From Gracilariopsis chorda (Eukaryota; Rhodophyta; Florideophyceae; Gracilariales; Gracilariaceae): 64,000 nt of DNA. The translations under genes were made by a program, and so were the position numbers. The DNA lies in the NCBI GenBank assembly GCA_003194525.1, contig NBIV01000149.1, positions 62,001 to 126,000 on the forward strand, in the 5' to 3' direction. Of the stretch, positions 1-64,000 are shown one piece after another; position 1 is the stretch's first letter, and each line of letters opens with the position of its first letter. Below the pieces are notes generated by a model. It ran no database searches, was not told where the DNA came from, and was given only the letters and a program-made list of their open reading frames with translations.

Positions 1-756
1 GTATATGAACTACGCCCCACAATGGTGGGTATGGACACGTAGGACACGGTTTTGGGCCAATTGGCGGTTGGCCACAGTAGTGGATGTTGCCACGAAATGT
101 GGAGTGTTTTAGTTAATATTATTTATTATTTTCACACCCATTTCTGGGAAGCTAGTACTTAGTGCAACGGCGCACTGCCGTCGCACCAGTAAACCTTCCC
201 CAACAAGGGACCCCAACTTGGGGAATTGGCTCTAGTTGTTGCCGCTTGCGCGCGTGCTCTACTCCTCCTTGGAGGGAAACTCCGTAAACCACGGGACATC
301 TAACCCCCTTGCTCATCTAAAGAAGCCCATCCTTGGGAGTATAATTGTTCCAATCATATTGGTGTTTCGCCCTGTATAGGGAGTCCTGTCCACCGGCATT
401 GCTGTATCTGTTCGTCGCTCTCGCCACTCACTTTGTCCTTCCTTCCTCCTCTTCGCCCTTCCTTTTTTCCCCTTTTTAGGGTAGCACCTCCCGCTATCCG
501 CGGCCCTCGTGTGCGCATCCGCTCACACATCCCCACTTACGTGGAAATATACCTCTACTGAGGACCACACCCCGCTCACGCGGATACCGATTCTTCGCCT
601 TCACCTCCCTGCGCGAGTCGCGACAGGTGTCCCTGGTCTTACAAACCGGCTTCGCCGTGACACCTCTGGGAGGGCTCTACCCAACTGGGTTCACCTCGTG
701 AGAGGAAGATCCCGAACGTCTTTCGGTGTTTTTCCCCTTTGGGGCATTGCACCACA
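1..756 (+). repeat. H-family LTR, truncated at the window edge
   Basis: This is the reverse complement of the LTRs at 33644-34467, 42465-43289, 60531-61354 and 20507-21332. It ends at 756 with TTGCACCACA, the family's terminal CA. The other terminus lies beyond the window. Its sense strand is plus, so it does not belong to the minus-strand Gag-protease next to it. It abuts and truncates that protease, which makes it a solo LTR or the 3' LTR of an element to the left. Near 385-440 it shares a variant block with the 42465-43289 LTR that the other three copies lack. Confidence 0.9.
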
Positions 757-17006: not shown

Positions 17007-17047
17007 CTTTTTGCGATCATCCACACTACTTCTTTCGCTCTCACACT

Positions 17048-19793: not shown

Positions 19794-19814
19794 TTACCCC
19801 CGTCCAGGTCCGTC

Positions 19815-20506: not shown

Positions 20507-21332
20507 TGTGGTGCAACGCCCCAAAGGGGAGAAACACCGAAAGACGTTCGGGGTCTTTCTTCCGTGGAGTTGAACCCACTTGGGTAGAGCCCCTCTAAAG
20601 GTGGCACGGTGGAGTCGGTTTTTGAGACCGAGGCAACCCTTCGCGAGTAGCGCAAGAGGATTTAGGACAAGAATCGGTATCCAAGAGAGCGTGAATGCAT
20701 CCTCGCCAAAGGTAGATTTCCACGTAAGTGGGGGTGTGTGAGCGGATGTGCACACGAAAGCCGCAGATAGCGGGAGGTGCTACCCTAAAAAGCGGAAAAA
20801 AGAAGAGTGGAGAGGAGGAAGAGAGGACGAAGTGAGTCACCACAGTGACAGGGGCGAACGGCGATGCCTGTAACAATATCCCTATACAGGGTGAAACACC
20901 AATGCAATTGGAATAATATGACTCCCAGTGATGAGTCCCTTTAGATGTGCAAGGGGGTTAGATGTTCCGTGGTTCACGGCGTTTCCTTCCAAGGAGGAGT
21001 AGAGTACGCGCGCAAGCGGCAACAACTAGAGCCAATTCTCCAGGTTGGGGTCCCTTGTTGGGGAAGGTTTACTGGTGCGACGGCAGTGCGCCGTCGCACT
21101 AAGTACTAGCTTCCCAGAAATGGGTGTGAAAATAATAAATAAAATCAACTAAAATACTCCACATTTCGTGGCAACATCCACTACTGTGGCCAACCGCCAA
21201 TTGACCCAAAACCGTGTCCCACGTGTCCATACCCACCATAGTAGGGTGTAGTTCATATACACACTACACAACCGATAATATCGGGAAAGCATTCAAGTAC
21301 CAAGAATCCCTCCCTGAGGGCGTTGCACTTCA
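20507..21332 (-). mobile_element. Solo LTR of family H inside element B
   Basis: An 826-bp LTR begins TGTGGTGCAA and ends TTGCACTTCA on plus. It is flanked by an exact 5-bp duplication TGTCG (20502-20506 and 21333-21337). No internal sequence is present, so it arose by recombination between the LTRs of a full element. It splits the integrase of B, which reads ...ETLLLH...LKQLDRA before it and THRWEEF after it. It keeps the 10-bp stem and most of the short hairpins of family H. Confidence 0.93.
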
Positions 21333-22187
21333 TGTCGCTCTGTCGAGTTGCTTTAATTAATGTAGCAGCAGCGTCTCCACTGTTCCATTAACCCGTTTTA
21401 CTGCGCCATTAGCGCGCGGGTTGTATGCAGAAATGGTGCGATGGTCTATTCCGTTAAGGGTAGTGAGTTCTTGGATAAGTTCGTTCACAAATTCAGAGCC
21501 GTTGTCAGACTACATGACTTTTGGAACTCCAAAGATCGATAGCACTACCCACAGCGCGCGTGCGACTTGTTCTATTTCCTTGCTTTGCAGTGGCTGCAGT
21601 ATTGCCAACTTCGTCATGATGCAAATGATTGTTAACAGTGTGTAATGCCCACTGTCGGATTCTGGTAGTGAAATGATGAGGTCGATCGCAATGTGGTCCC
21701 ATGGTAGACTGGCAACCACCGACTTCAATGGTTGGAATCCCCGCTTCTGAATATTGTAGCGTAGACACGGCAAACAACTGTTGTTCTCTCTTCTGATGTC
21801 CTTTCGGATATTGTCCCACAAGTATCCGTCGTTCCACAGCTTCTTAAATACTTCCATCTCTCCAAAATGACCGAAAGCGTGTGCTCGCTGTACCAAACTG
21901 TGTCGTTCTTTCTCTGTGCCTGGAGATTTCTTGTCCCTAACAAGCTGCGAGACCGTGATGCTTGAGAGCGACACGGTAGGCATTTTGTGGCCGAGGGCGT
22001 CTGCAAGGTCGTTGTGTGGGCCTGGGAGATGAACGACAACAAAGCTGAACCGAATGATCCGATCGAACCATCTGGCCATCATCGAGTTCACAGTTCGCTG
22101 GCTATGCAAAAAGGTCAGCGCTCGATGGTCGGTATAGAGCACAAAATGTCGTCCCGGGAGGTAGCATCTGAATTTATCAATGCCCAA
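21333..22187 (-). pseudogene. RNase H end and integrase core of element B
   Basis: It begins with RNase H (YLPGRHFVLYTDHRALTFL and VVHLPGPHNDLADAL). The integrase zinc site follows (AHAFGHFG with its His pair, then CLPCLRY with its Cys pair). The first catalytic Asp lies in HIAIDLI. The second is in the SDNGSEF region, after a TAG following VPKVM at 21510. The Glu-containing motif NGAVKRV shows K where E is expected in GAVERV. The frame is shifted relative to the upstream RT ORF near 22190. Confidence 0.8.
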
Positions 22188-24373: not shown

Positions 24374-25102
24374 TCAATTCTTGCAGAATTGGATCCAGTC
24401 CTTGAATAAACACTGCTGCAAGGGTTTCATCATCTTCTCGCGGCTAGTGCGAGTCATCAAGCTGGTGAAACGATCATTGTACTCTTGAACAGACTCTGAA
24501 TTGGCTTGGCGGATGGTCATGAGGTCTCTTATCAGCTTATCTCTGATCGCCGGGGACTCAAAATGATGAAGAAAATTTGCGTGTACCTCTTCCCATGTCA
24601 GGTTGGACAATGTCCGCTCTGCTCATTTTCGGTCATAACCATTCAAGGTAGTCAGAAGTGCTGCAAACAAACGCTGCTGCGGTATCTCATGCGCTGAAAG
24701 CAACGTCCGGATTTTGCCAAGAAATTCAAATGGGTCCTTGATAGATACAGAGTCATAACCTCTAAATGATGGCAGGTTAGGTAAACGGGACGGTGTGGTA
24801 CGAGTAGAGACTGATCCAAGGCTACGTTCCTCTGCATTTGCCAGGGGTAGCAGAGATCTTGTAGTATCTATTCGTCGTTTCGTGTTATCAATTGTCTGCA
24901 TGACATCATTACGTTCCTGTCTAACTCTGTTTATCTGTCGTCTGTATTCCTTGGTCTGTGAGGCGTCCATTTTCTCAACTTTCAAAGCGTTAAGCTCGTA
25001 ATACTCTTCTTTCAACTTCAAATAGGAGGCAGATAGCGACTTCATCTCCATTTCCTGACGCCGTAGCAACGATTCCATCACGGCTGAGGGGCTTTCTGTC
25101 AT
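24374..25102 (-). pseudogene. Gag of element B
   Basis: It starts at ATG 25102 (MTESPSAVMESLLRRQEMEM). A charged coiled-coil-like N-terminal block runs to about residue 100, then SFRGYDSVSIKDPFEFLGKI. The capsid part continues in a second frame (24610-24374) with SPAIRDKLIRDLMTIRQ and ESVQEYNDRFTSLMTRT. One frameshift near 24620 separates them. The start is about 45 nt from the 5' LTR edge. Confidence 0.78.
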
Positions 25103-25148
25103 CGTTCTACCACGCTAACGATAGAGTAATTCGTTCGATCGACAAAAA

Positions 25149-25398
25149 TGTGTTAATGAGGTTGGGGGTACTGGAGTTCGATCAGACACCTGCCGGTCGT
25201 TCTGGTTTACTGGGCCCACGGAGTCCTTCTTATAGGACTCCTGGGTTGCTACTGACATCTACTACCTAGGATGCACATTCTAAAGCGCCAAAAGGGGTAA
25301 CAGTCCAACCAGGGTAGGTCCGTCTGATTCCAGATGAATCCGGAGGTTGCCCGTTGTGTAGCTACGTCAGTCTGCCTGATTGCATTTCCATCACCACA
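25149..25398 (-). repeat. 5' LTR of element B
   Basis: The partner of 19544-19793. On the coding strand it ends CACA at 25149 and is followed by TTTTTGTCGATC, with no TGG primer site right at the edge. Confidence 0.88.
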
Positions 25399-26028
25399 TG
25401 GCATGATGGCTACTGGTGGGATGGAATTCGTAAGAATATTTGAGAAGAAACAGGATCTTGCGTGCCCTGTCTACGTTATAACGTTCAGAGGAGGGTGTTT
25501 CATCCCCTCACGCCGGTTTCGGCGGATCCCCCATGGGACCATATCGCTGTTGACCTTATCACCTCTTTACCGGTCTCCGACAGGGGTCATAACACGTTGC
25601 TCACTATCGTGTGCCTAATGACCAAGTTTGCTATTCTGCGGCCTTTGAAGAGTAAGTAGATGGAAGAGGCGGCCTGCGCCCTTTGGGAAGTATTGTCCAT
25701 TTTTGGGGTCCCTTGCGTGATACAGTTGGACAACGGTTCAGAATTTGTAAAGGACCTCATCAGCCAGCTAACGACTCTCAATAGCATAGACCATCGCAAA
25801 ATCTCACCGTACAACTTGAGAGCAAACGGTGCTGTAGAACGTGTCAAGGGTGTGGTTGAAACCTGGTTGCTCAGGGAAATCGATGGAGCTACGCATAGGT
25901 GGGGGGAGTACGTCCCTTTTGTCCAGTTGGCTTACAATTGTAAGATCGCCGCCCTGACCTCTTCGACACCTTTCGCGTTGATGTTTGGGAGACGCATCAG
26001 TGGTTTTGAGAAGTTTAGCAGGACTTGA
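25399..26028 (+). pseudogene. Integrase core of element A (continuation after nested B)
   Basis: Reading resumes with HDGYWWDGIRKNI, then the second half of the zinc site CVPCLRY. The catalytic core shows D in HIAVDLITSL, D in QLDNGSEFV and E in NGAVERVKG, so the DDE triad is intact. Stops at 25478 (TGA) and 25657 (TAG) interrupt it, and it ends after FEKFSRT. The family inserts element DNA into the host chromosome. Confidence 0.82.
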
Positions 26029-26162
26029 AACTCCTCACGGTTGGCACTACATGCCTGGAAAGTGCATCAGAAGAATTAACGGAAGAAATATTCCCTGTAG
26101 TCTCCGAGAGGATCAAGAATGTTAAGAGCAGAGACTGTAGATAGTTTGAAGCTGGAAAGCTT

Positions 26163-26578
26163 ATGGTAACTGCAAACGCATTCCTCCCTGGATCTCGAGT
26201 TATGATGCGAGATGTTACGAAGGAATCAAAGTCGGACGCCAGATACGAGGGTCCGTTTTATTGCGTGCGCAGAAACCGTGGCGGGGCATACGTCTTGCGC
26301 GATGAGCTTGGAAAGCTCAAGAGAGCCGTGCCAGCAGACCACTTGAAGTTATTTTGAGAATGGATGCTGGACGAGCTGTAGAGGAACCAACGTTTTAAGT
26401 TCAGAAAACCACCGCTCACCGCACAGAGAAAAATGGAAAGATGAGCTACTTTGTGGTGTGGAAGGATCGCAACGTAGAACTGGGATGGGAGCCAGTAGAG
26501 AATTTTAACAACATTAAAGTTATCCGGAAGTATTGGAAGAAGGTCCGCCCTACCAGAGCGAGTAAGAAGTCTGAGTAG
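26163..26578 (+). pseudogene. Integrase GPY/F module and chromodomain of element A
   Basis: DARYEGPFYCVRRNRGGAYV is the GPY/F module. After a stop at 26355 and a frame change, the chromodomain reads MSYFVVWKDRNVELGWEPV, then VIRKYWKKVRP, ending at 26578. A polypurine tract follows at 26590-26600, directly before the 3' LTR. Confidence 0.78.
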
Positions 26579-26600
26579 TTTGGACCTGGCGGGGGTGATG

Positions 26601-26944
26601 TGGTGTCATATGTTCGACAGGCCGCTGTGCGTGGGTACCCCTTACGTGGCTGCATGTTACGAAGAACGAAGAGCCGCACATTATAAGTGCCACCTATGCA
26701 GCACAATCTATTTCTTAGTATCTAATCAGGTTGGCGCATTTGCACGCATTGTGCCTAGTGGCGGTCACTTGGCACGGCCACCCACAGTCGAAACGGGCGG
26801 CTGCGCCGTTACAAACGGCCTCCGTTGTTGAGGAAGATGCATTACTTAATATAACAAAGACGAACTCAGTAAAACGGAAGCGGAGGCAGGCGTCTGATCG
26901 TAACCTTTTCCTCTTGCGTGCTCCTTCTCCGTCTTTACAACACA
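26601..26944 (+). repeat. 3' LTR of element A
   Basis: It begins TGTGGTGTCATATG and ends TTACAACACA, paired with 16661-17006. The TTGAT duplication follows at 26945-26949. Confidence 0.88.
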
Positions 26945-33643: not shown

Positions 33644-34467
33644 TGTGGTGCAATGCCCCAAAGGGGAAAAACACCGAAAGACGTTCGGGATCTTCCTCTC
33701 ACGAGGTGAACCCAGTTGGGTAGAGCCCTCCAAGAGGTGTCACGGCGAAGCCGGTTTGTAAGACCAGGGACACCTGTCGCGACTCGCGCAGGGAGGTGAA
33801 GGCGAAGAATGGTATCCGCGTGAGCGAAGTGTGATCCTCAGTAGAGGTATGTTTCCACGTAAGTGGGGGTGTGTGAGCAAATGCGCACACGAGGGCCGCG
33901 GATAGCGGGAGGTGCTACCCTAAAAAGGGGAAAAAGGAAGGGTAGAGAGGAGGAAGAGAGAACGAAGTGAGTCGCGAGAGTGACAGGGGCGAACGGCGAT
34001 GCCTGTAACAATATCCCTATACAGGGTGAAACACCAATGCAATTGGAATAATATGACTCCCAGTGATGGGTCCCTTTAGATGTGCAAGGGGGTTAGATGT
34101 CCCGTGGTTTACGGCGTTTCCTTCCAAGGAGGAGTAGAGTACGCGCGCAAGCGGCAACAACTAGAGCCAATTCCCCAGGTTTGAGTCCCTTGTTGGGGAA
34201 GGTTTACTGGTGCGACGGCAGTGCGCCGTCGCACTAAGTACTAGCTTCCCAGAAATGGGTGTGAAAATAATAAATAATATTAACTAAAATACTCCACATT
34301 TCGTGGCAACATCCAGTACTGTGGCCAACCGCCAATTGACCCAAAACCGTGTCCCACGTGTCCATACCCACCATTGTGGGGCGTAGTTCATATACATACT
34401 ACACAACCGATACTATCGGGAAAACGATCAAGTACCAAGAATCCCTCCCTGAGGGCGTTGCACTACA
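33644..34467 (-). repeat. 3' LTR of element H
   Basis: It begins TGTGGTGCAA and ends TTGCACTACA on plus, so the ends form an imperfect inverted repeat of about 10 bp. In one variant block (near 33971-34012) it groups with the 20507 and 60531 LTRs, not with its own partner. It contains the 10-bp stem GTGCGACGGC/GCCGTCGCAC. Confidence 0.92.
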
Positions 34468-34480
34468 TATCCCCCCCCCT
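34468..34480 (-). other. Polypurine tract of element H
   Basis: On the coding strand an A followed by nine G and ATA directly precedes the 3' LTR. This is the expected start site for plus-strand DNA synthesis. The copy at 61355-61367 has AGGGGGGCGATA in the same place. Confidence 0.8.
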
Positions 34481-34524
34481 AAGACGGGAAAACGACCGCA
34501 GAAGCGGACGGTTCCCAGACAAAA

Positions 34525-34575
34525 ATGGGGGATAAAAGCGCGTGCGCCGTCTCCGGTTCTTCTCTCCTGGCATAG
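34525..34575 (+). pseudogene. Deletion remnant of the antisense gene of family H
   Basis: The ATG and first codons (MGDKSACAVSGS) match the start of the antisense ORF at 61411 (MGDKSACAASGS). The frame then runs into sequence matching the region just after the end of that ORF (63286 onward) and stops at once. About 1.84 kb is missing relative to the other copy. The junction lies at GGTTCT, which occurs at both ends of the missing segment there. Confidence 0.8.
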
Positions 34576-34724
34576 CCAGCTATTGTAGTATAGTGTTGTG
34601 GGGAGCTAGCTGCTCACTTGAATAAACTTTTCCGTTTAGAACGGTGATTCTCGTTTGAGTTCCCCGTCTTCGACGGACCTTGCCTTGTTATCCTTTCCTA
34701 TCGCCCTCCGCTTGCGCGGCAACG

Positions 34725-36365
34725 TTACCCAACTTGGGCATTTACCAGCGTGGCTGGAGCTGCAGTTCCCGTTTGACGGCGGTATCGCACGACCTGCGAC
34801 CGTGGGAGGTGTTCGATTGATTCCCACGTATCCCCACTGGGGTCATACCCGTACCAGCGGACGCAGTATTGTAGAATACCATCCTGGTCCCAGGTGTGCC
34901 CGACAAGTCGGTCTACTACGAACTCTCGTTCGTAGACATGCCGGCCGTGCCGGGTGGTGGTTGTATTCCCTTGCGTGGGCCGTCCACTGTGCGGTATATT
35001 GCCCCCTATCCGGGTTGTCGGCGAAGTCTCCGGCGTTGCCGTGCGCTGTCCTAGTGGCCGCTGCTCATGCGGGAAAATATCCCTCAAGAGGGTGTGTGGC
35101 GTCACGATTTTCACCGGCAAGTCATTCCCCAGAGGGGCGCCGTTGTTCCCGTCATCACGGTAGGCCGGGCGAACCGCCAGTCGGCGGGAGACTTGGGCTC
35201 CGCCTTCGCGGTTGAGCTCACGAACCGCGAGTTTGCGGGAAGATGACCGCTCCTGCGGAATCGGCATTTCCACAATCCCCTGGGGGGTCCCGTGCGACAC
35301 GGTGATTGGGTGGCAAACCGCCTCCCTGCCAGGCGCACGAGCGCTCTGCTCCATACGTTCCGGCGATGCCGTGGTGTCCCCGGCTACTGACGGGTTGCCT
35401 GGGGCTAACTCCGGTACACCGGTATTTTGGTCAAAATTCCCCTTTGGGGGGTGCCGAGCAGGTGCCGATGACACCCTTTTCAGGGGCTTGGCCGCTACGT
35501 GCGGTTCACCGTCTCCACGCGGAGGAGCAGCGTCCGGTATGACCGGTTTCGAGCGTGCGATGGCGTGTGCTTTTTCCGAGTTTCTCGGTTCTTCCCGGCA
35601 GCGTTGCGGGAGGTGGTGCAAATTATTCCCCGGAACGGGGGCTTCAATTCCGTCGACAACGGGAGGCGTTTCCGGCGCTTGCGGGCCAGGGCCTGAAGCT
35701 TTGGCTGCGGCTTGGCTGCCTTTTTCCCCAAGAGGGGTGTGGGGATTTCCCATTGGCGCTGGTGTATCTGGGCGCCTCTTCTCCACAAGGCGCGGGTCTG
35801 ATCGACCTGATTGAACCGCTTTCGTGGGGGCTTCCGCCAACGGCGGCTTCGAGGCATCGCTCTGCTCAGGGGATTGAGGGCGATCGTCGCCGTAATCCCG
35901 TAACGGGGATTCTTCCCTGATAGGGGTGTGCGGTAGCTGCGTTTCAACTTCCCGTTGCGACGGCGATATCGTTCCTCGAAAACGAGTGTTCTCCTCCCCC
36001 TTCTTAGACGGAGCAGCGGGATAAGGGATAACATTCCTCGACTGGCGGGTGTAAATTCGCACCAGGGGGGCGGGCGCTGAGAGGCCCGAATTACCCGGCT
36101 GAGCCAGTGAGACCGACAGGGTCGGTAGGTCTGAGAGTCCCTGGCTGGGGTGTGTTAGTACCGTAGGCCTAGTACTCCCGGAGGATTCCGGTGTTGCAGA
36201 GTCCGTAGAAGCGGGATGTTCTGAATCCAGGATTACCTCTGAGGAGGGAGGGGGGGCAAGGACAACACGATCACGGGAAATCCGTTCGTGCGTGTCGCCC
36301 ATCTCTACCACGACAGTGTCGGTGTTCACAGAGATGACCTTGAATGGTCCATCCGCCACAGGCAA
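34725..36365 (-). CDS. Integrase C-terminal module with a very long linker and a terminal chromodomain (element H)
   Basis: This open frame of 546 codons continues integrase after a frameshift near 36565. Residues 5-45 are the GPY/F module (ADGPFKVISVNTDTVVVE). A Pro/Ser/Arg-rich linker of about 430 residues follows, containing repeated short peptides (RKLAVRE, RRLAVRP, HTLLRDIFPH). The last 70 residues hold a chromodomain (YEREFVVDRLVGH, QYCVRWYGYDPSGDTWESI), with the aromatic cage Tyr and Trp visible. In typical chromoviruses the chromodomain sits close to the integrase C-terminus, so this spacing is unusual. The linker DNA is one of the most hairpin-dense parts of the element. Confidence 0.82.
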   Translation of the reverse strand: MPVADGPFKVISVNTDTVVVEMGDTHERISRDRVVLAPPPSSEVILDSEHPASTDSATPESSGSTRPTVLTHPSQGLSDLPTLSVSLAQPGNSGLSAPAPLVRIYTRQSRNVIPYPAAPSKKGEENTRFRGTISPSQREVETQLPHTPIREESPLRDYGDDRPQSPEQSDASKPPLAEAPTKAVQSGRSDPRLVEKRRPDTPAPMGNPHTPLGEKGSQAAAKASGPGPQAPETPPVVDGIEAPVPGNNLHHLPQRCREEPRNSEKAHAIARSKPVIPDAAPPRGDGEPHVAAKPLKRVSSAPARHPPKGNFDQNTGVPELAPGNPSVAGDTTASPERMEQSARAPGREAVCHPITVSHGTPQGIVEMPIPQERSSSRKLAVRELNREGGAQVSRRLAVRPAYRDDGNNGAPLGNDLPVKIVTPHTLLRDIFPHEQRPLGQRTATPETSPTTRIGGNIPHSGRPTQGNTTTTRHGRHVYEREFVVDRLVGHTWDQDGILQYCVRWYGYDPSGDTWESIEHLPRSQVVRYRRQTGTAAPATLVNAQVG

Positions 36366-39300
36366 GAGTTTATGGCGCTTCTACCGTTCCCGGTTGTAGT
36401 ACTCCTTCCTGATGAAGATGTAGTTATTCGCCCGAATTGGGGACGGTTTTCCTCGCAAGCGAGCATTAAACTCCCGCTTGTAAGCGGCTTGGGCCCGTGC
36501 CATAGACTTCTGCGCAGCGGGGACCAGCTTGGAAGGCCATTGCTTCCATTACTGCCGGTAGATACCCACTGATGGGAAATTGTCCAAGGTAGCTTGGGGT
36601 TCAGCGCCACAGGCGGGGGTGTTCTAGATAGAACCAACTCGAATGGCGAAACTCTGGTAGTCCGGTGTACCTGCGTGTTGTGCGCGTAGGTTAACGCATC
36701 AGCGTACATGTCCCAGTTCTTTGGGTGGTCTGCGACGTAGGAACGTAACGCCGCGAGTAACGTCCGGTTAAACCGTTCAACTTGCCCATTACATTGGGGG
36801 TGGTAGGTAGTCGTGACCAAGTTCTCGACATACAGGATGCGGCAAACATCCTGGAAGAACTTGCTCGCGAACTGTTTCCCGTTATCGGAGAGCACCTCCA
36901 CAGTGGGATCGTAGACGAAAATCCAGTGCGTCACCAGAGCCTGGGCCACCGTGAGAGTGGTTATCCTCCGAAGAGGGACAGTCCGTACCAGCTTAGAAAA
37001 GCGGTTGGTAATGACAAGTAGAAACTTCTTTCCACGTTTCGTGGTGAGTAGTGGTCCGAGAATATCGATTGCGATAAACTGTAGCGGCGCCCTTGCAGGG
37101 AATAGTTTCATCTTCTTCGCATTTTTGCGGAGTTTCACGCGATTCTTCGCGCATTCGCTACAAAACCGCACGGTTGGGTAGCAATCCACCGCCATGGCGG
37201 GCCAACAGAAATCCCTTCGCTGGGTTAGGTAGAGTTTCCTCTCACTTGGGTGACCTCCAATGGGGGCATAGTGTGATAGATGTAACACCCGCGACTGCAG
37301 GGAATGAGGTACCACAATCTGTGGGCGGGCTTCGACCTTCTTTACGAGGTAGCCTTTTTCGTTTACCCCGAAAGGGAGATCTTCACCACCGTTCAGACGG
37401 GCACGAATCCTCGTACAGAATGGGTCGCCAAACTGTTCTCAGATCATCTCTTCCGGTGATACGGGTACAAAGTTTCCCGGTAAGGGGTTCTCAGATTTAT
37501 CTCGCGATGCGAGTAGTTCGTCAAAGTCAGCATCGTCGTCCCAGTTTTCTGGCCCAGCCTCGACGGCACATTCCGGATCATACGGGTCTATGGCCATGAA
37601 ATATGGGACTTCATCATCCTCCGTTGGGAGTGCTTCCCCACTTGTGGGTAACCGCGACAGAGCGTCGGCTTGGGTGTTCTGAGCGCCCTTTTTATAAATG
37701 ACTTGAAAGTCATATTCCGCGAGGCGGAGTCTCCAGCGTATGAGGCGTCCCGACGGGTCGGAGATATTCATTAACCACCTCAATGAGGAATGATCCGTGT
37801 ATACGGTGAAGTGAACTCCCATAAGGTAGGGGCGCAGAGTGGTCATCGCCCATACGACGGCGAGGCACTCTTTCTCCGATACGGAGTAGTTCCGCTCATG
37901 AACATTGAGCGAGCGCGACTAATAAACAATTGGATTTCGTTCCCCCTCGGGGGTGGTTTGAAAAAGAGCACACCCGACTTGGTAGTCGCTCGAGTCCGTA
38001 TCTACCGAGTATGGCAACCCAAGTTTTGGAAGATGTAGGATTGGTGCTGATGTGACAGCCTCCTTCAAGGATTAAAAGGCTTCCGATTGCTCGAGCGTAA
38101 ATGTTCCCAGTTTTGGGGGGTTCCGCTTTCGCAACAACGCGTTCAGGGGCGCCGCAGTATCCGAAAAGTTCGGGATAAACCGTCGAGAGACGTTGACCAG
38201 CCCCAGAAAGGAGCGCATTTCCGTTTGAGTACGGGGCTCTTTTGCCTCAACGAGGGATCTGACTCGAGCTTTCTCGATCGCTAACCGTCCAGGACGGATA
38301 ATGTGACCCAGACACTTCACAGTATCTGTGAAAAACTCGCATTTCCTCAACTTGAGGGGAATTCCCGCATCGCGGAGTACGGTCAGCACGTCTTGGACGT
38401 GAGTGAGATGGTCGTCCAACGAGTTGGAGAAGATGATAATATCATCAAAGTAGACCAGACAACTCTGCCACTTAAAGGGGTTGAGTAGAATATCTACTGC
38501 ACGCTGGAAGGTGGCGGGGGCGTTGGTCAGCCCAAATGGCATCCGCTTGAAGCGGTAGGTCCCTACGTGGCAGGTGAATGCGGTTTTGTCGCGATCCTTC
38601 TGTCTGACAGATACTTGCCAATATCCCCAATTGGCATCGAGAGCCGTGAACACGGTGGCGTCTCCAAGGGAGTCAATACACTCGTCCATACGAGGGATAG
38701 GGTACGTGTCCCTAACAGTCACAGCATTGAGCCGGCGGTAGTCGACACAGAACCTCCAGGTTCCGTCGGCCTTTAAAGCCAGTACAACTGGGGATGCCCA
38801 GGGTGATTGAGCGGGCTCAATCACACCTGCGCGGAGCATCTTGTCCATTTGGGACTGCCCCTCTTCCCGAGCTTTCGGACCTGCCCTGTAAGGGGGTTGT
38901 GCAACCGGTCGCGCACCGGGGATTAAATTGATCCGGTGTTCCGTTGCGTTAATCTCGCCAAGCGAGCCATCCCACATTGTGGTGAATTCCCGTAACATTG
39001 TACGGAGTTTGTCACGGTGCGACTGTGGCACGTGGCTGAAGTCCAGCGCTTCAAGTGTTTTTTCCGGGTCAGTCCGGTCGTTGCTCGATGGAACATTGTC
39101 CTGTGGAACAGGTGTGGTTCGCAATTCCGAGTTACTCGGTGTGTTCGACGCTGAAGTAGCGGTTTCCTCCCTCTCCTTAGACTTGACGTCTTCGGACGGC
39201 GGGGCGAACTCCTCAGAAGAGGTGGTAACTCTGAGTACATCGGCGGCTTTCATCTTCGTTGGCAGCATTACCATAGGATGGGGGGTTACACTCCCAATTA

Positions 39301-40138
39301 CTTGGTGTTTTACCAGATACTGGGGGTGTTTGCCAAGGTTGGCAGCCAATATCCGGAAAGGAACATCCGGGGAAATGGAGACAAATCCATTAGCCAGCGC
39401 CAGCTGGGATTTCTCGTACAACGAGGCGAGGGGTTGTATAACCCAAAGACCGTGTTGACGGGAATTTACCTGCACCCAAACTTGGGACTCAGCTGGTATA
39501 GAAACCGAGGCAGCGACGTGGAGCTTGGAGGACTCGCGGGACGCGAGCGGTGGTTCTTGCGCAGCAGGGAGCGGAACTTGTTTCCGAGAGCACCGCTTTA
39601 GCGGGCGGCGAACAATCGGAATTGACGATCCGTCGTCAAGTTCTACACGCCTGAGGCGGGGCCTGATTGCGTCGACAAATCTGTCGCAGTAATCACATCC
39701 CAGTATGACTGGTGCTGCCAATGAACGGCAAACGATGAAGTCCAACTTCACCACAGAGGTACCAAGTCTTACGACGAGGTCCACTGTGCCCACCGTTTGT
39801 AACGGATTGTTGTTCGCATCCGAAATGTCAGGGACCGCGTCAGAGCGGATACGAGACCGCACAAGCAGGGGTAACCATGATTCCACAACAAATTTGGGGC
39901 CTGCACCTGTATCCAGGACGGTGTGAGACCTCACCATAAACTGGGGGTCAAGGCCAAGGTCGGCATAGACCTTACAGTTGCGCTTGGCCAAGACCAAGAC
40001 TCTACCGGGAATCCGGGGATTTTTACTCCGTATCCACGGGCAACGCAACACACCGAGGTGCGCAGAGTCCGCGTCAGCGCTGTCTTTCCTCGAGAGGACT
40101 TTCACCGGGGAGCGTGGTGAGGACGCCTCGGGCGCCAA
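36326..40138 (-). pseudogene. Pol of element H: protease, RT, RNase H, integrase
   Basis: A single frame of about 1,270 codons with three in-frame stops: TAA (38069-38071), TAG (near 37919) and TGA (37436-37438). The protease motif is VLDTGAGPKFVVES. RT shows VLALKADGTWRFCVDYRRLN, FTALDANWGYWQVSV, GLTNAPATFQRAVDILL and active site CLVYFDDIIIFS. RNase H shows YSVDTDSSDYQVGCALFQ and FTVYTDHSSLRWLMN. The integrase zinc site is HLSHYAPIGGH then CSECAKNR. Its DDE triad lies in FIAIDILGPL, VLSDNGKQF and GQVERFNRTL. Apart from the stops all catalytic residues are kept, so the lesions look recent. A frameshift near 36565 leads into the chromodomain frame. Confidence 0.9.
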
Positions 40139-40185
40139 CAGCCTCGTTTTTGAGGACCCCTCTCTCGAAGGGGAGACTCCCTCAG

Positions 40186-42359
40186 TTAGTTTTCCGCCTT
40201 CGGCGGTGGGTTGGTTTCCTCGAAAACGAGTGCTTCATCCCGTTGACGGGGGTTTCTATCCGTATAAGCGGGGGTTGCAACGGATGGTTGCGTGATCTCC
40301 CGAATCGGGGTGTATGAAGCTTGCCGCGCACGCGGGGTCTGTGGTAGGGCATGGGAAAAGTCCGTTTTGGCACGGAGGTAGGAAGCTGTCGGGACGGAAC
40401 GTTTCTCTTCTGGAGTGAGGGCCTCATAATTTTCCACTACCTCGGCCATATCTTTCAGTGAACAAATACACTGAGGTGAGGTATGGCCATGGGCATAGCA
40501 CAGGTGGCAAATGAGAGCCAATACCGCGACACGCGGATTATTATTCCGAGTATCGGAGAAGCGAACAGCAGGGCGGGTGTCAGTCCATCCAGGCCGTTGA
40601 TAACGGGAATGACCGTTTGAAAACGGGAGTCGTTGGGGTTGAACCAGACTGTTACCACCGTACAAAACGGGGTCTTCTGTTTCCGTATCACGGGTCATCT
40701 CCGTCGTTGACGGTAAATCACTGGTGGGTATCGACACACCATCCTCCTGCACTAGATGCACGGTATCAAATCTCTGTCCAGGATTCCCATCCGCGGTGAG
40801 CGGGAGAGAGGAAGCTTCGCTTTCCAGCAACAACGCCTTAACGGACTTAGACCGATTGTTCGGAGTTCTTGCACGAAGTGCATCCCCTTCCGCTCGAGCG
40901 TGGTGGACTAGCTCAAGGTAGGTGATCCTCCGCTTGTCCTCCCGATAACGGGCAACTAAACTCCGGATTGCCGGGTCAAGACCATCGATGAACATGGTAC
41001 TGCGCTCCTCAGCGGGGTATACGTTACCACATCTGTGGAAAGCCTTGTTAAGGCGCACCGAGTAATCGGTCTCGGTCTCTCCAGCACGCTGGCGTGTATC
41101 TCGCAAAGCGAGGATAGCCTGCTGAATAGCGGTGTTCGTGGCGTAGGAGCGCAGAAGATACTGCACAGCCTCCGGCCAGCAAGTAACTCTTCCCTCGGAG
41201 GCACGAGAAGATCCTCTGACAGAGTTGTATTGGTCCTCCGCCACTCCCCGTAGGAAATACGGTAAAGCTAAATAGGCTTGTCCCTCATTCATACCGAGGA
41301 TATCGGCCTCCGCTACAAAGCGGGATAGGAAATTTAGTACTAGAACTGGGTCCTCTCCAGTAAAATACTGGTTGCGGAGCGAGAGCTGCATTCGCTTAAT
41401 GCATTCTCGCACCTTTCCCGTACCACAGGGCGTACGTACAAGTGACGAATCTTCGAGCCGGTAGTACCGGTATGATAAAAGCTTCCGGTAATCCGGGTTT
41501 GTCGGTTTCAATTCCCGTAGACCGGGGTGTCTTCTCCCCTTCTGGCGGGTTCGGACCCCGCCTTCAGTGGCCGATGACCGCTTCGAGCGGGAGGTGTAGC
41601 CTCGCCTCTCGTCCTCCGAGTCGGAGTCCGAGGAGCTCGAGCTAACCGAATGGTTTCGGGATGAGTCCGACGATGTCGAAGAATCGGAGTCCGAATATTT
41701 TCGGTGGTGTTTCCGTCAATGACGGGGTTTCTTCTTCCCAGCAAGCTGGTCGTTGTGCGATGCCTCGTTTACCGGATCATCTGGGGATGGTTTGTCCATG
41801 AGGACGAACTGCTCCAGCGTCTCCAGGCGGGCACCAATCCGATCAAATCGGGCTTCAACTCCTTCGATGAAGGTGGCGGGTTGTCCCAAACTCTCCACCA
41901 CGGAGTTGACGTCAGACCGTAAAATATGGAGTTCCTTGGCGACCTCCTTTACGGGGGTTGCCAAGACCACCTCTTGGAGGGATTTTAGTTCCCCTACAAG
42001 GGTGTCATGGGCGGTCCACAGAGCGCGGACCTGGGATTCCAGGGAAGTCCCCGGGGGGGTGTTATCACCCGTTCCACGGGGGCTTGAGGCCGCGACAGCG
42101 GGTGCAGGCCGGGGTGCCTGGGGCACTGCGGCAACAGCCGGAGTCGATGCTGCATTCCCCTGCGGGGGTGATAACGAGGGCAAAAGGAGGTTCCGGGGTT
42201 CCCGGTTGGGGTATCATTCCGCGATGAAGTGGCGCCAGCACGGCTGGAACTTGTCCGTATAGGGATACGGGGTACGAACCGAACTTCGGAAGTGTCCGCG
42301 TTGTCGCAGGAGCGACTACGCCTCACCACTGGCTCCGCATCGGAGGGATTTCTCGACAT
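40186..42359 (-). pseudogene. Gag of element H
   Basis: It starts at ATG 42359 (MSRNPSDAEPVV). A frameshift near 42183 leads to a Pro/Ala-rich then coiled-coil block (LKSLQEVVLATPVKEVAKEL). A TGA at about 41715 follows GKKKPRH. The frame then continues through an acidic Ser-Asp-rich stretch and basic residues into the capsid part from 41511, with PYFLRGVAEDQYNSV and ETETDYSVRLNKAFH. The zinc knuckle CHLCYAHGHTSPQC is a regular CX2CX4HX4C near 40460-40510. The in-frame TGA lies inside one of the hairpins (CCGTC-AAT-GACGG, 41713-41725). Pol follows in a different frame. Confidence 0.82.
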
Positions 42360-42447
42360 AAGAAAATACCGTTACGACGGGAAACGATCACGGAACGTCC
42401 ATTGAATGAAAACAAACCTCGTAAGAGGGAAAACAAAAACAGATTTT

Positions 42448-42461
42448 AGGTGGGGAGACCA
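42448..42461 (-). other. Candidate primer-binding site of element H
   Basis: Three bases after the 5' LTR on the coding strand, TGGTCTCCCCACC could pair with a tRNA ending GGTGGGGAGACCA. The position and leading TGG fit the rule. The tRNA identity is not known. Confidence 0.5.
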
Positions 42462-42464
42462 CTT

Positions 42465-43289
42465 TGTGGTGCAATGCCCCAAAGGGGAAAAACACCGAAA
42501 GACGTTCGGGATCTTCCTCTCACGAGGTGAACCCAGTTGGGTACAGCCCTCCCAGAGGTGTCACGGCGAAGCCGGTTTGTAAGACCAGGGACACCTGACG
42601 CGACTCGCGCAGGGAGGTGAAGGCGAAGAATCGGTATCCGCGTGAGGGGGGTGTGATCCTCAGTAGAGGTATGTTTCCACGTAAGTGGGGGTGTGTGAGC
42701 GGATGCGCACACGAGGGCCGCGGGTAGTGGGAGGTGCTACCCTAAAAAGGGGAAAAAGGAAGGGCGAAGAGGAGGAAGGAAGGACGAAGTGAGTCGTGAG
42801 AGCAACGAACAGATACGGCAATGCCGGTAACAATATCCCTATACAGGGCGAAACACCAATGCAATTGGAATAATATGACTCCCAGTGATGGGTCCCTTTA
42901 GATGTGCAAGGGGGTTAGGTGTCCCGTGGTTTACGGCGTTTCCCTCCAAGGAGGAGTAGAGTACGCGCGCAAGCGGCAACAACTAGAGCCAATTCCCCAG
43001 GTTGGGGTCCCTTGTTGGGGAAGGTTTACTGGTGCGACGGCAGTGCGCCGTCGCACTAAGTACTAGCTTCCCAGAAATGGGTGTGAAAATAATAAATAAT
43101 ACTAACTAAAATACTCCACATTTCGTGGCAACATCCACTACTGTGGCCAACCGCCATTTGACCCAAAACCGTGTTCCACGTGTCCATACCCACCATTGTG
43201 GGGCGTAGTTCATACACATACTACACAACCGATACTATCGGGAAAACCATCAAGTACCAAGGATCCCTCCCTGAGGGCGTTGCACTACA
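42465..43289 (-). repeat. 5' LTR of element H
   Basis: It begins TGTGGTGCAA and ends TTGCACTACA on plus. The 10-bp stem with a 5-nt loop is at 43032-43056. In the block near 42793-42830 it shares ACGAACAGATAC with the 1-756 copy, whereas its own 3' partner has a different version. Confidence 0.92.
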
Positions 43290-60530: not shown

Positions 60531-61354
60531 TGTGGTGCAAGGCCCAAAAGTGGAAAAACACCGAAAGAAGTTCGGGATCTTCCTCTCACGAGGGGAACCC
60601 AGTTGGGTAGAGCCCTCCCAGGGGTGTCACGGCGACGCCAGTGTGTAAGACCAGGGACACCTGTCGCGACTTGCGCAGGGAGGTGAAGGCGAAGAATGAT
60701 ATCCGCGTGAGCGGAGTGTGATCCTCAGTAGAGGTATGTTTCCACGTAAGTGGGGGTGTGTGGACGGATGCGCACACGAGGGCCGCGGGTAGTGGGAGGT
60801 GCTACTCTAAAAAGGGGAAAAAGGAAGGGCGGAGAGGAGAAAAAGAGTACAAAGTGAGTCGCGAGAGCGACGGGGGCGAACGGTGATGCCAGTAAAAATA
60901 TCCCTATACAGGGCAAAACACCAATGCAATTGGAATAATATGACTCCCAGTGATGGGTCCCTTTAGATGTGCAGGGGGGTTAGATGTCCCGTGGTTCACG
61001 GCGTTTCCCTCCAAGGAGGAGTAGAGCACGCGCGCAAGCAGTAATAACTGGAGCCAATTTCCCAGGTTGGAGTCCCTTGTTGGGGAAGGTTTATTGGTGC
61101 GACGGCAGTGCGCCGTCGCACTAAGTACTACCTTCCCAGAAATGGGTGTGAAAATAATAAATAAAATGAACTAAAATATTCCACATTCCGTGGCAACATC
61201 CACTACTGTGGCCAACCGCCAATTGACCCAAAACCGTGTCCCACGTGTCCATATCCACCATTGTGGGGCGTAGTTCATATACACACTACACAACCGATAA
61301 TATTGGGAAAGCATTCAAGTACTAAGAATCCCTCCCTGAGGGCGTTGCACTTCA
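60531..61354 (-). repeat. 3' LTR of the second H element
   Basis: It begins TGTGGTGCAA and ends TTGCACTTCA on plus, and the 10-bp stem is intact (about 61098-61122). The polypurine tract on the coding strand is at 61355-61367. Confidence 0.92.
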
Positions 61355-61410
61355 TATCGCCCCCCTAAGACGGGAAAAAGACCGCGGACGCGGAGGATTC
61401 CCAGACGAAA

Positions 61411-63259
61411 ATGGGTGATAAAAGCGCGTGCGCCGCCTCCGGTTCTCCGGCAAATCCCTCTGCACCAGAGTCACTAACCCCTGCTACTGCAGCTGTTACT
61501 TCCTCTCCTCCCCTTCGCACTTCCTCGTCACCCAGCGCACTCCGACAAACAACAACAACCACCCTCAAAGAGGGAGAAATGAACAACGACAACAACATCA
61601 ACAACAACAGCCAACCTCCGAAGTCTCTCGGGCGATACACCACCGGTTTCTGGCCAGTTACCCTGCCTCAGGGCGATCAACCTCTGGTAAAACCGGGAAA
61701 TATGGCTACTGCAGCCGACCATCTCTTCGCACTACCACCTTCGGTGGTATTCTCCGGAACCGCTCCGGTGGCCAACTGGCCAACTTACAACAGCCTGGTG
61801 GCGTTCAACCCGATGAATCGGAATCACGCGTTGCGCCTGCACCTTGCCCCGTGGTTTCACCCGGTCGCTGTCCTCAATGAGGGATTGGTCACCGCTTATG
61901 CGGATGGCTCAGACACCCTTCCGATGGATCTGCCCAGAGCAGTCAGCACATCGTGGGATTGGCGTCACGGGATTGCGAATTCCGCATCACCACTCAGTAG
62001 GAATTCGGGCGAGACCATCGCTGTGGCGCAGACCGCGTTGACGCGCTTGGCATACCAACGGCAGAGCCCGGCTCCATTTGATGTACCCGTCCCGCCGGAG
62101 TTTGGCTTCGAAGTTAGCCACTTCCGCACTCGCGGGGAGATTGGGTACGGCGAGAACATGTTCCGCCTCGAGACACTCGCTTGGAGGAATTTCCCCGTAG
62201 CGCGGCAAGAAGCCCTTTGTCGGGAGCGACCGATTATTCGGGCGGAGTTCAGGTATCTTCCCCGGCAATACCGATCCAACTTTCTCCAAAACGTCGTCCG
62301 CTATGAGCGGCGTTGGCGATCCCAATTCGGGTATTTCATCCCGTATCAGAACGCGGGGATAGAGCGGATTGCGCCAACTCACCGACTAGGTCGGTATGTA
62401 GCACTCCCCGAGTGGTGGCGCTTCCATGAAGCCTGCCGGGGGTGCTACATAGAACTCCCACCGGTACTTACGTACCTCGGTTCGCTGCTCATGCAGGATC
62501 CCCGGTCGGGGTTGTGGTCCGTAGTGGTTACGGAGTGGGCGGCCCGCACTGCGGGTTATATCCTCAACGAGGCATACGACCAGTATCGTCTCTGGTTCCT
62601 CCCACCGCGTGTGCGGGCAGCGATCCGCAACTTGGATCTTCGCATCCCCCTTGGGGGCCAGGCCAACAATGAAGAGGTCCTCCATTACTTGGGTACATCG
62701 TCAGCGTTAGCTGGAGTGAGGTCCCGCTGGAGCAAAGCGGTCGTCTGGATGGCGGCAGCGGTAACACCCCGGTGGTCCGGGACTCGGTAGAAACACCGCC
62801 CTTGCGGGGGATTTTTTCTACTTCGACCCCTGGGAGTTCCGGGAAATTTCCTCCGAGGAGGCGCACGAGCTTAGCGATGCGCCCTGGCATGTGCCAGAAG
62901 ACCACCCGGTGGGGTAAGTCGATTCCGACGACTACTACCGCGCATACGGCGGGAATGACCCACTGGTGGATAACGAACCGGAAGAACCCGGGGAGATGGA
63001 CGTAGAGGAAACCAGCGCTAGCGCAGAAGCTTCCCCAGAGGGGATACCTCCGCCCGAGCCGGGTGCTGACCATTCGGCGGCAAGTGCCGGACCTTCTATC
63101 CCCAGCGGGGTGACGGCGAATGAAAACGAGATCATCGCACGTTTTCTCTGGGGTGCCAGTCTAAGCACTGCCGAGGTATCCGGGGATATCACCGCCATGG
63201 CGGACGCGTTGGCTTACCGCCTTGCGGGTGGTTACGCCCCGGACGATGGGTGTAAGTGA
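61411..63259 (+). pseudogene. Antisense gene of family H, unknown protein of about 615 codons
   Basis: An ATG-initiated frame of 459 codons runs opposite to the element's own genes, between 3' LTR and chromodomain. It then shifts frame near 62765-62790 and continues as GDFFYFDPWEFREISSEEAH, through a TAA at 62915-62917, to VDSDDYYRAYGGNDPLVDNE and the stop at 63259. Residues 1-90 are Ser/Thr/Pro/Asn-rich. Residues 95-455 are a globular, Trp- and Arg-rich region (WHPVAVLNEG-like, FRYLPRQYRSNFLQNVVRYE, VVVTEWAARTAGYILNEAYD). The C-terminal part is acidic, then Pro-rich. No transmembrane helix, zinc site or catalytic motif is obvious, and I recognise no family. The LTR lies upstream and could supply a promoter. 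Two lesions suggest this copy is dead, but coding character is strong throughout. Confidence 0.75.
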
Positions 63260-63449
63260 AACCTCTAGTGTAGTTCCCTGGTTCTATTTTCCTGGCATCA
63301 CCAGCTAGTGTAGTATAGTGTTGTGGGGAGCTAGCTGCTCCCCTGGATAAACTTTCCTGTTTAGAACGGTGATTTTCGTTTTAGTTCCCCGTCTTCGACG
63401 GACATTGCCTTGTTATCCTTTCCTATCGCCCTCCGCTCGCGCGGCAACG
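63260..63449. other. Convergent spacer between the antisense gene and pol
   Basis: The region is conserved with 34580-34724, including GTGTAGTATAGTGTTGTGGG and GAGCTAGCTGCTC. GAGCTAGCTGCTC is nearly palindromic. It lies where transcripts from both strands should end, so it may hold both termination signals. This is inferred. Confidence 0.4.
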
Positions 63450-64000
63450 TTACCCAACTTGGGCATTTACCAGCGTGGCTGGAGCTGCAGTTCCCGTTTG
63501 ACGGTGGTATTGCATGACCTGCGACCGTGGGAGGTGTTTGATTGGCTCCCACGTATCCCCACTGGGGTCATATCCGTACCAGCGGACGCGGTATTGTAGA
63601 ATACCATTCTGGTCCGAGGTGTGTCCGACAAGTCGATCTACTACGAATTCTCGTTCGTAGACCTGCCGGCCGTGCCGGGTGGTGGCTGTACTCCCTTGTG
63701 GGGGTTTCCCGCGGTGCGGTATAACGTCCCTTAGCAGGGTGTTCGGCGATAACTCCGTGGTTGCCGTGCGCTGTGGTAGTGGCCACTGCTCGTGAGGGAG
63801 GATATACCTCAAGAGGGTGTTTGGAGTCATGGTTTTCACCGCCAAGTCCTTCCCCATTGGAGCAGGGTCGTTTCCGTTTTCCCAGTATTGCGGGCGAACC
63901 GCCAGTTGGCGGGGGAATTGGGCTCTGCCTTCGTGGCTGAGCTCACGAACCGCGAGTTTGCGGGAAGACGACCGCTCCTGCGGAATCGGCGTTTCCACGA
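63450..64000 (-). CDS. Linker and chromodomain end of pol, second H element (partial)
   Basis: It matches the C-terminal third of the ORF at 34725-36365. The linker has two copies of a peptide module (TPNTLLRYILPHE and SPNTLLRDVIPH). The chromodomain follows (YEREFVVDRLVGH, QYRVRWYGYDPSGDTWEPI) and ends at 63450. It is open to the window edge. Confidence 0.82.
   Translation of the reverse strand, partial: VETPIPQERSSSRKLAVRELSHEGRAQFPRQLAVRPQYWENGNDPAPMGKDLAVKTMTPNTLLRYILPHEQWPLPQRTATTELSPNTLLRDVIPHRGKPPQGSTATTRHGRQVYEREFVVDRLVGHTSDQNGILQYRVRWYGYDPSGDTWEPIKHLPRSQVMQYHRQTGTAAPATLVNAQVG

What the first reader, a model, noticed from the sequence alone, without database searches (positions are those of the whole stretch)
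33644..43289. Family H is saturated with short, polarised hairpin modules, in LTRs and inside genes
Seen directly: perfect short stems follow each other every 15-40 bp. LTR: CCCC-AAA-GGGG 42477-42487, CCGAA-AGACG-TTCGG 42495-42509, CCTC-TCAC-GAGG 42516-42527, ACCC-AGTT-GGGT 42531-42542, CGGC-GAA-GCCG 42564-42574. Gag: CCGCT-TCG-AGCGG 41578-41590, CCGTC-AAT-GACGG 41713-41725. RT: CCGAA-AAG-TTCGG 38161-38173. Linker: CCGGT-ATG-ACCGG 35534-35546, CCGAG-TTT-CTCGG 35576-35588, CCCCG-GAA-CGGGG 35628-35640. Many share a polar frame on plus, TTCC + stem-loop + GGGGTGT: 35724-35740, 35913-35930, 40299-40313, 41512-41530, 42675-42697, 43068-43085. With equal base use, a perfect 5-bp stem with a 2-5 nt loop is expected about once per 256 bp. 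The other retroelements here do not show it. Inference: the modules are either a proliferating palindromic micro-repeat or selected RNA structure across the whole genome of the element. I know of no described retrotransposon with this property.
Basis: partly seen in the sequence, partly recalled or inferred. Interest (0 to 1): 0.88.

Follow-up and report, generated by a model that had tools for sequence, protein, structure and literature searches.

The report
Hairpin lattice across red-algal retrotransposons
A group of mobile elements in a red seaweed carries tiny perfect hairpins from end to end, even inside its genes, spaced by about 20 letters or multiples of that; the pattern looks selected, but what it does is not yet known.

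Summary
Element H (33644-43289, minus strand) is a full-length but decayed Ty3/gypsy chromovirus in Gracilariopsis chorda. It has 304 non-overlapping perfect hairpins (stem >=4, loop 3-6) against 114 in shuffles. The stem >=4 excess survives codon shuffles in all four ORFs tested. Four things go beyond the finding. (1) It is a clade trait: four more families of the genome (K, M, N, O; 63-73% nt identity) and one contig from another assembly show it; the other Ty3/gypsy families tested do not. (2) Stems are mostly 4-5 bp, loops mostly 3-4 nt, and pairing is strictly Watson-Crick: G-T fares no better than A-C. (3) Hairpins follow a period of about 20-22.5 nt, strong in H, K and N, weaker in M and O. 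(4) Each family has its own foot and flank dialect (H: CC..GG, A-rich flanks in sense). Seven positions are shared by three or more families with different arm sequences. Hairpins arise by substitution, so a proliferating micro-insertion is not supported. Best reading: a selected array of small hairpins recognised on the element's own single-stranded nucleic acid, most likely by Gag. The mechanism is unproven.

The parts
33644..43289 (-). Element H, full-length but decayed Ty3/gypsy chromovirus; TG...CA ends; flanks TAGGT / TGGGT look like a 5-bp target duplication with one change
   Evidence: ends and LTR pair; domains; LTRs 95.2% identical (37 mismatches in 826), so an old copy
42465..43289 (-). 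5' LTR (sense on minus strand): 35.2 hairpins/kb, 24.2 CC-hairpins/kb
   Evidence: 40 near-full-length places scored in the genome, this one included, the others 95-96% (a lower bound)
33644..34467 (-). 3' LTR: 32.8 hairpins/kb, 23.1 CC-hairpins/kb
34470..34479 (-). candidate polypurine tract (G-run in sense) next to the 3' LTR
   Evidence: read; inference
41512..42464 (-). leader and upstream gag side, 37.8 hairpins/kb (densest of eight parts)
40186..41511 (-). gag-side ORF (441 aa); hairpins 38 vs 18.4 in codon shuffles
40468..40509 (-). CCHC zinc knuckle of Gag (C-X2-C-X4-H-X4-C); one such match in the pieces held of each of H, K, M, N, O
   Evidence: regular-expression scan of three frames
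38072..40138 (-). protease/RT ORF, RVT_1 at about 38297-38773; hairpins 67 vs 28.4 in codon shuffles, z 9.7
36326..37315 (-). integrase ORF (H2C2 and rve); hairpins 28 vs 12.6
34725..36365 (-). long linker plus chromodomain ORF, Chromo at about 34797-34922; hairpins 50 vs 25.1
38161..38173 (.). example hairpin inside the RT ORF, CCGAA-AAG-TTCGG
35724..35740 (+). example of the H flank dialect, TTCC...GGGGTGT on +; the pattern TTTCCCCNNNNGGGGTGT has 305 matches genome-wide vs 3 for the reversed control, the listed ones mostly copies of this one site
1..756 (.). part of another H LTR (92-94% to the H LTRs)
   Evidence: 19 CC-footed hairpin sites in 1-1000
20507..21336 (.). H-type LTR copy, 87-90% to the H LTRs
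60531..64000 (.). second H-like element running off the window: LTR 60531-61354, H-like linker 63280-63998; hairpin ratio 2.18 in 61340-64000

Best explanation
A clade of red-algal Ty3/gypsy chromoviruses carries, from LTR to LTR, a selected array of small hairpins (mostly 4-5 bp, loop 3-4 nt, C-rich 5' foot and G-rich 3' foot in the five G. chorda families) whose centres tend to lie multiples of about 20-22 nt apart. Shown by computation: density, geometry, Watson-Crick-only pairing, periodic spacing, family dialects, clade restriction among the rows tested, and compensatory change at some positions. Inferred: the hairpins are read on the element's own single-stranded nucleic acid (genomic RNA or minus-strand cDNA) by a protein that packs side by side on them. 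The likeliest reader is the element's Gag. The array would then be many weak, redundant packaging and condensation sites (one CC-hairpin per 59 nt on average in H, 68 in K, 96 in M). Family-specific feet and flanks would let each family's Gag prefer its own RNA among related ones, and redundancy would let single sites come and go, as seen.
For: Stem >=4 excess over codon shuffles in coding DNA of H, K and M. In K the excess starts at the LTR edge. Five families plus L065 have it, and one 100/100 branch separates these six rows from the twelve labelled as without. P(stem >=6 given >=5) is 0.12-0.18 in six of six families vs 0.25-0.29 shuffled. Period of CC-hairpin pair distances: H 21.5 nt z 4.8, K 20.0 z 4.5 (0 of 300 nulls each), M 20.5 z 3.1 (p 0.057), pooled 20.5 z 6.0; non-CC hairpins z 0.3 at 20.5. 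In N and O, fetched later, with C-footed hairpins: N 22.5 z 6.3 (0 of 200), O 20.0 z 3.1 (p 0.03). CC dinucleotides alone: 20.75 nt in H (z 5.0), 21.25 in N (z 5.6). CC..GG feet with both inner pairs matched: 160 vs 15.5 (H), 158 vs 12.9 (K); GG..CC 17 vs 13.9 and 19 vs 13.8. Positions paired in >=3 of 5 families: 17 windows, i.e. 13 distinct centres, vs codon-shuffle mean 1.0 windows (max 3 in 60 shuffles); 9 windows (7 centres) have different arm sequences vs 0.5; one uses all four pair types over five families.
Against: Nothing here shows binding by Gag, or that the hairpins form in cells. The lack of G-U tolerance on either strand is unexpected for an RNA-only signal and fits DNA-level or two-strand explanations equally well. 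The period depends on the hairpin class: with CC-feet only, O shows none (top 33.25, p 0.65, 32 pairs); with all hairpins K and M are marginal (p 0.085, 0.045); L065 shows none. Raw CC spacing peaks at 14.75 in M (z 2.1), and for GG dinucleotides K peaks at 13.5 and a control stretch reaches z 4.5 at 14.75, while G+C content shows no 20-nt period in H. L065 has no dominant CC foot. Only 14 of 101 H hairpins are kept in K, and H-K co-location of CC-hairpins equals a null that keeps shared codons (9 vs 8.1). Codons under family-private hairpins have lower aa identity, which a mutational origin also predicts. CC-hairpin density is lower in integrase (11.6/kb) than in LTRs (23-24/kb).
Confidence: 0.42

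Rival explanations
1. Mutational origin: the reverse transcriptase of this clade folds back or switches template at near-palindromes and perfects their arms, so palindromes accumulate without selection.
For: Watson-Crick-only pairing and equal treatment of G-T and A-C are what arm-copying gives. Such a process is in print for cellular DNA (PMC8794818, passages seen; PMC8604942, abstract and outline seen). Codons under family-private hairpins have lower aa identity than codons outside hairpins (0.57-0.69 vs 0.68-0.73; choosing private hairpins may itself bias this).
Against: Arms rarely exceed 5 bp. CC..GG is strongly favoured over GG..CC in H and K, dialects differ by family, and spacing is periodic. 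Loop inversion, a mark of arm-to-arm switching, is 0 of 107 co-located pairs, 29 of them with identical loops. Density stays high in the RT ORF (32.4/kb). Changes between copies gain hairpins at about the random rate in K (6 vs 5.5), H linker (26 vs 23.7) and H LTR (23 vs 19.9), but above it in M (20 vs 10.2) and H gag (31 vs 16.2); mutations private to the reference copy could cause that, which I did not check.
Confidence: 0.2
2. Anti-silencing: hairpins spaced at about small-RNA length on both strands make small interfering RNAs fold on themselves and their targets inaccessible. Strict Watson-Crick pairing follows because both strands must fold.
For: Period 20-22.5 nt is close to small-RNA length (general knowledge; no data for this alga). 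Symmetric rejection of G-T and A-C and equal folding of both strands fit a two-strand target.
Against: Does not explain CC..GG rather than GG..CC feet or the family flanks. No small-RNA data were available. Counts per bin are Poisson-like and gaps between CC-hairpins reach 348 nt in H, so many 21-nt stretches hold none.
Confidence: 0.15
3. General genome-scale ordered RNA structure (GORS) for RNA stability or escape from dsRNA sensing.
For: Folding energy below dinucleotide shuffles: mean z in sense -1.31 (H), -0.67 (K), -0.52 (M) vs -0.03 and -0.01 in two control stretches.
Against: No sense/antisense difference (paired -0.20 +- 0.15, 0.14 +- 0.14, -0.11 +- 0.13). No preference for G-U over A-C. 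GG..CC feet, equally stable, are hardly enriched in H and K. Stems rarely exceed 5 bp.
Confidence: 0.08
4. DNA-level function: double-stranded palindromes on one face of the helix (2 x about 10.3 bp) bound by a dimeric or chromatin protein.
For: Strict Watson-Crick symmetry; period near two helical turns in H, K, M and O.
Against: A dimer reads half-site letters, not complementarity of arbitrary inner bases, yet inner bases pair far beyond their marginal frequencies (160 vs 61.8 at the second inner pair in H). N's 22.5 nt does not fit two turns well.
Confidence: 0.1

Closest known systems
Dispersed RNA packaging signals of ssRNA viruses (e.g. enterovirus-E, PMC7793301; abstract read)
   Same: Many degenerate sites along one genome, proposed to be recognised by the structural protein; sites partly conserved
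   Different: Here the carrier is an LTR retrotransposon; strict Watson-Crick stems, 4-5 bp length, about 20-nt period and family dialects; no binding shown
Genome-scale ordered RNA structure of RNA viruses (PMC3950689, PMC3695492; listing with start of abstract only)
   Same: Structure spread over the whole genome including coding parts
   Different: No strand asymmetry, no G-U preference, short stems only, sequence-specific feet
Yeast Ty3 genomic RNA structure by SHAPE-MaP (PMC11381356; abstract and one section read)
   Same: Ty3/gypsy element; structured regions dispersed over the genome
   Different: The section read reports a mosaic with stable regions up to 30% of the RNA; no repeated hairpin module or period is described in the parts I read
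Template-switch palindromes (PMC8794818 passages; PMC8604942 abstract) and coding palindromes of Nematomorpha mitochondria (PMC6649704 abstract)
   Same: Perfect inverted repeats, also in coding DNA; arms kept complementary
   Different: Nematomorpha repeats are long (up to 284 bp); here 4-5 bp, periodic, with fixed feet, and no loop inversions seen
Chromoviruses (Ty3/gypsy with chromodomain)
   Same: gag with CCHC, RT, integrase, chromodomain, LTRs
   Different: The hairpin array; not a described trait in the listings of my ten paper searches

Membership tests
Ty3/gypsy chromovirus | RT of RVT_1 type, integrase (H2C2, rve) downstream of RT, chromodomain at the end | tested here: met
   Pfam hits above cut-off in that order on the minus strand
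Ty3/gypsy chromovirus | LTR pair with TG..CA ends and short target duplication | tested here: met
   LTRs 33644-34467 and 42465-43289, 95.2% alike; flanks TAGGT/TGGGT, one mismatch
Ty3/gypsy chromovirus | Gag with CCHC knuckle (present in many members) | tested here: met
   one C-X2-C-X4-H-X4-C match in each of five families
Genome-scale ordered RNA structure | folding energy below shuffles along the genome | tested here: met
   mean z -1.31, -0.67, -0.52 in H, K, M; near 0 in two controls
Genome-scale ordered RNA structure | sense strand folds better than antisense; G-U pairs accepted | tested here: not met
   no strand difference; single G-T stems 0.97-1.41x vs A-C 1.11-1.51x, Watson-Crick 2.6-3.7x
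Dispersed packaging signals | many similar hairpins with a shared recognition feature along the genome | tested here: met
   CC..GG feet in H and K, shifted or mixed feet in M, N, O; family flanks in H, K, M
Dispersed packaging signals | bound by the structural protein and needed for assembly | not testable with these tools
   needs protein and RNA
Template-switch palindromes | loop inversions | tested here: not met
   0 inverted loops in 107 co-located pairs
Template-switch palindromes | excess of hairpin-making changes | tested here: inconclusive
   near random in K, H linker, H LTR; above random in M and H gag, cause not resolved
Template-switch palindromes | Watson-Crick arms without wobble | tested here: met
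Mobile palindromic micro-repeat | whole modules present or absent as insertions | tested here: not met
   101 (K) and 100 (M) H hairpins lie in ungapped aligned stretches (gapped ones not counted); only a 5-nt gap in the linker alignment read

The most novel reading that the evidence does not exclude
A retroelement clade has turned its whole genome, genes included, into a periodic lattice of small two-strand hairpins with a family-specific 'signature'. This is a nucleic-acid code laid over the protein code, used to tell its own RNA (or cDNA) from that of rival families and/or to make both strands poor siRNA guides and targets.
Probability: 0.3. Interest if true: 0.92.

Novelty: new variant of a known kind. 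Interest (0 to 1): 0.82.

Why it matters
If the array is selected, it is a dense structural code laid over protein code along a whole LTR retrotransposon, replicated in at least five families of one genome. That makes two open questions testable: how a retroelement's Gag finds its own RNA among related ones, and whether mobile elements shape their sequence against small RNAs. If it is mutational instead, it points to an unusual reverse transcriptase that writes palindromes.

Tried and rejected
Proliferating micro-insertion: not supported. Codon or dinucleotide artefact: rejected for stem >=4. Property of all DNA around, or of all retroelements of the genome: rejected for the stretches and families tested. 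Regular spacing as under-dispersion of counts: not found, counts per bin match a random hard-rod null; order shows only in pair distances. Column polymorphism in stems vs loops among H copies: mixed, lower in linker stems, not in gag. Co-location of CC-hairpins vs a null that keeps shared codons: H-K 9 vs 8.1, H-M 9 vs 6.1 (max 9), K-M 12 vs 6.4 (max 10). G-U vs A-C as a strand test: no clear difference. IMG/VR scan: 15 stretches matched a pattern, none a relative. GTDB scan: 7 loci; L065 has the excess (1.99x), L066-L071 do not (0.92-1.27x). Paper searches: ten, with narrow term sets; none of the titles listed describes such an array, but the library lacks most subscription papers. The G. chorda genome paper is recalled only and was not seen.
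Full report
What the thing is. The window lies in a 194-kb contig of Gracilariopsis chorda, a red seaweed: a host permease ORF at 7090-7890 is 100% identical to a protein named from that species on a contig of the same length, 194473. H, 33644-43289, is a Ty3/gypsy chromovirus read from the minus strand: gag with a CCHC knuckle, RT, integrase, long linker, chromodomain. Its LTRs are 95.2% identical and its frames are interrupted, so this is an old copy; other copies with long open frames exist. Forty near-full-length LTR places (this one included) and 65 RT places were scored in the genome; the tool calls such counts lower bounds.

The observation. The 11 listed stem-loops are exactly where stated. 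The excess is 2.7-fold for stems >=4 and 3.3-fold for stems >=5 over dinucleotide shuffles. For stem >=4 it survives both kinds of codon shuffle in each of four ORFs; for stem >=5 two ORFs fall to z 1.4 against the stricter shuffle. It is spread over the element: 26.5-37.8 hairpins/kb in eight parts, while the CC-type is densest in LTRs (23-24/kb) and leader (22) and lowest in integrase (11.6). Strand polarity of the flanks is real in H.

It is a clade trait. Of the 30 RT loci returned by the genome search, 7 form family K and 23 family M; two loci of each were scored, ratios 2.26-2.44. Twelve more places, chosen by hand from the list, were fetched: two M, three N and one O copy with excess (1.92-2.41), five without (0.85-1.29), and one mixed piece that carries an H LTR fragment (1.72). 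In K the excess starts at the LTR edge (1.5 and 0.9 per 750 nt outside, 3.2 inside). In M the step is less clean: the host flank itself is raised (1.6, 1.94). L065, a stray contig in a Robiginitomaculum MAG with an RT 48% identical to H, has 1.99-fold excess with a different mix of feet. On an RT tree of 33 rows one branch (100/100) separates the six hairpin rows from twelve rows labelled as without. That label rests on hairpin ratios or ORF tests of the DNA; the mixed piece L082 was counted as without for its RT, whose flank was not scored apart, and two window ORFs sit on long branches. Fifteen protein rows have no DNA here and are untested.

Geometry and pairing. In six of six families P(>=6 bp given >=5) is 0.12-0.18 vs 0.25-0.29 shuffled. 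Stems of 4 and 5 bp are 1.6-4.5 times the shuffle, 6-bp stems 0.5-1.9 times in the five G. chorda families and 3.2 in L065. In H, where CC and GG stand at hairpin distance and the first inner pair is Watson-Crick, the second is Watson-Crick 160 times vs 61.8 expected from its own base use, G-T 8 vs 23.5, A-C 20 vs 36.1. In stems with one mismatch, G-T does no better than A-C in H, K, M or L065 (the two differ by at most 0.25-fold, either way). This rejection of wobble on both strands is the least expected fact, since it does not fit plain RNA folding selection.

Dialects. In sense orientation H favours C|CC..GG|AAA with A-rich flanks, K T|CCG..CGG|CT, M an extra outer pair around CC..GG; feet enriched in N are CC/TC/CT/CG, in O CG/CC, in L065 GG/CA/CC/CG/TC. 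GG..CC is hardly enriched in H or K (17 vs 13.9, 19 vs 13.8).

Period. Pair distances between CC-hairpins have a preferred period: 21.5 nt in H, 20.0 in K, 20.5 in M (p 0.057), pooled 20.5 with z 6.0; the non-CC hairpins show nothing (300 jittered nulls that move in steps of 3 and exclude overlap). N and O were fetched afterwards. With a wider class of C-footed hairpins, N peaks at 22.5 (z 6.3, 0 of 200 nulls) and O at 20.0 (z 3.1, p 0.03). With CC-feet alone N stays at 22.5 (p 0.035) but O shows none (32 pairs); L065 shows none in any class. Without calling hairpins, CC dinucleotides in H (20.75, z 5.0) and N (21.25, z 5.6) show it, K (20.5, z 2.5) and O (23.5, z 3.3) weakly, M not; three control sets reach at most z 2.1. 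For GG dinucleotides H peaks at 20.5 (z 3.2), but a control stretch reaches z 4.5 at 14.75, and G+C content shows no 20-nt period in H. So the period is firm in H, K and N, and suggestive in M and O.

Evolution. Families differ by 28-37% in this part of pol. Both-sides-changed pairs are Watson-Crick in 243 of 488 cells, G-T in 23, A-C in 52; slid controls give 14-27% Watson-Crick. Seventeen windows, or 13 distinct centres, are hairpins in three or more of five families (codon-shuffle mean 1.0 windows); five windows (three centres) in four or more. The shuffle removes shared ancestry, so the nine windows (seven centres) with different arm sequences are the fairer count (null 0.5). The best, where the protein reads YSxSEKE in H, uses C-G, T-A, G-C and A-T at one pair. 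Yet most hairpins are not shared. Differences between copies destroy hairpins at about the random rate in four of five sets; the H linker loses fewer (51 vs 67.0, sd 5.9).

Mechanism. Limited stem length, fixed feet, family dialects, periodic spacing and replaceable sites together read like an array of weak protein sites on single-stranded nucleic acid; Gag is the obvious candidate. I give that 0.42. The chief rival is an RT that perfects palindromes (0.20): it explains the strict pairing but not the feet, the length limit, the period or the lack of loop inversions (0 of 107). The two-strand anti-silencing idea (0.15) explains strict pairing and the period but not the feet. These are inferences; none was tested at the bench.

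Novelty. As a Ty3/gypsy element H is ordinary. The array fails two tests of ordered RNA structure (strand asymmetry, wobble). Of the tests of template-switch origin, loop inversion is failed, excess of hairpin-making changes is open and strict pairing is met. The array resembles dispersed packaging signals of ssRNA viruses, without proof of function. The titles listed by ten searches of the held library show no such array in a retroelement.

Noticed in passing
L065 (JALZUP010000409.1), L066-L071: Contigs filed under bacterial or archaeal MAGs encode Ty3/gypsy-type RTs; they look like eukaryotic contamination. L065 belongs near the hairpin clade.
   Followed up: partly
window 1001-4000: Mild hairpin excess (1.52x, z 5.2) with AC..GT feet (10 vs 1.7), as in family M, but no nucleotide match there to the fetched pieces of H, K, M, N, O; the ORF 1179-2543 in it shows no codon-level excess for stems >=4 and no Pfam hit.
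   Followed up: partly
window 16661-26900: Repeats 9938 bases apart suggest another LTR element, with an H-type LTR copy inside at 20507-21336; no overall hairpin excess.
   Followed up: no
L021: An H LTR beside a diverged H-like LTR (about 68% at 900-1496), perhaps a further subfamily.
   Followed up: no
window 7090-7890: Host permease ORF, 100% to a Gracilariopsis chorda tyrosine transporter; names the host.
   Followed up: yes
window 3982-5055: ORF with C2H2 zinc fingers in a GC-rich stretch with TGT/TTG trinucleotide runs.
   Followed up: no
H stems, gag pieces of loci L003-L026: Singleton changes among copies are denser in stems than outside (0.11-0.12 vs 0.07 per column in gag with hairpins defined on L003, L004, L006), possibly CpG decay.
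   Followed up: no
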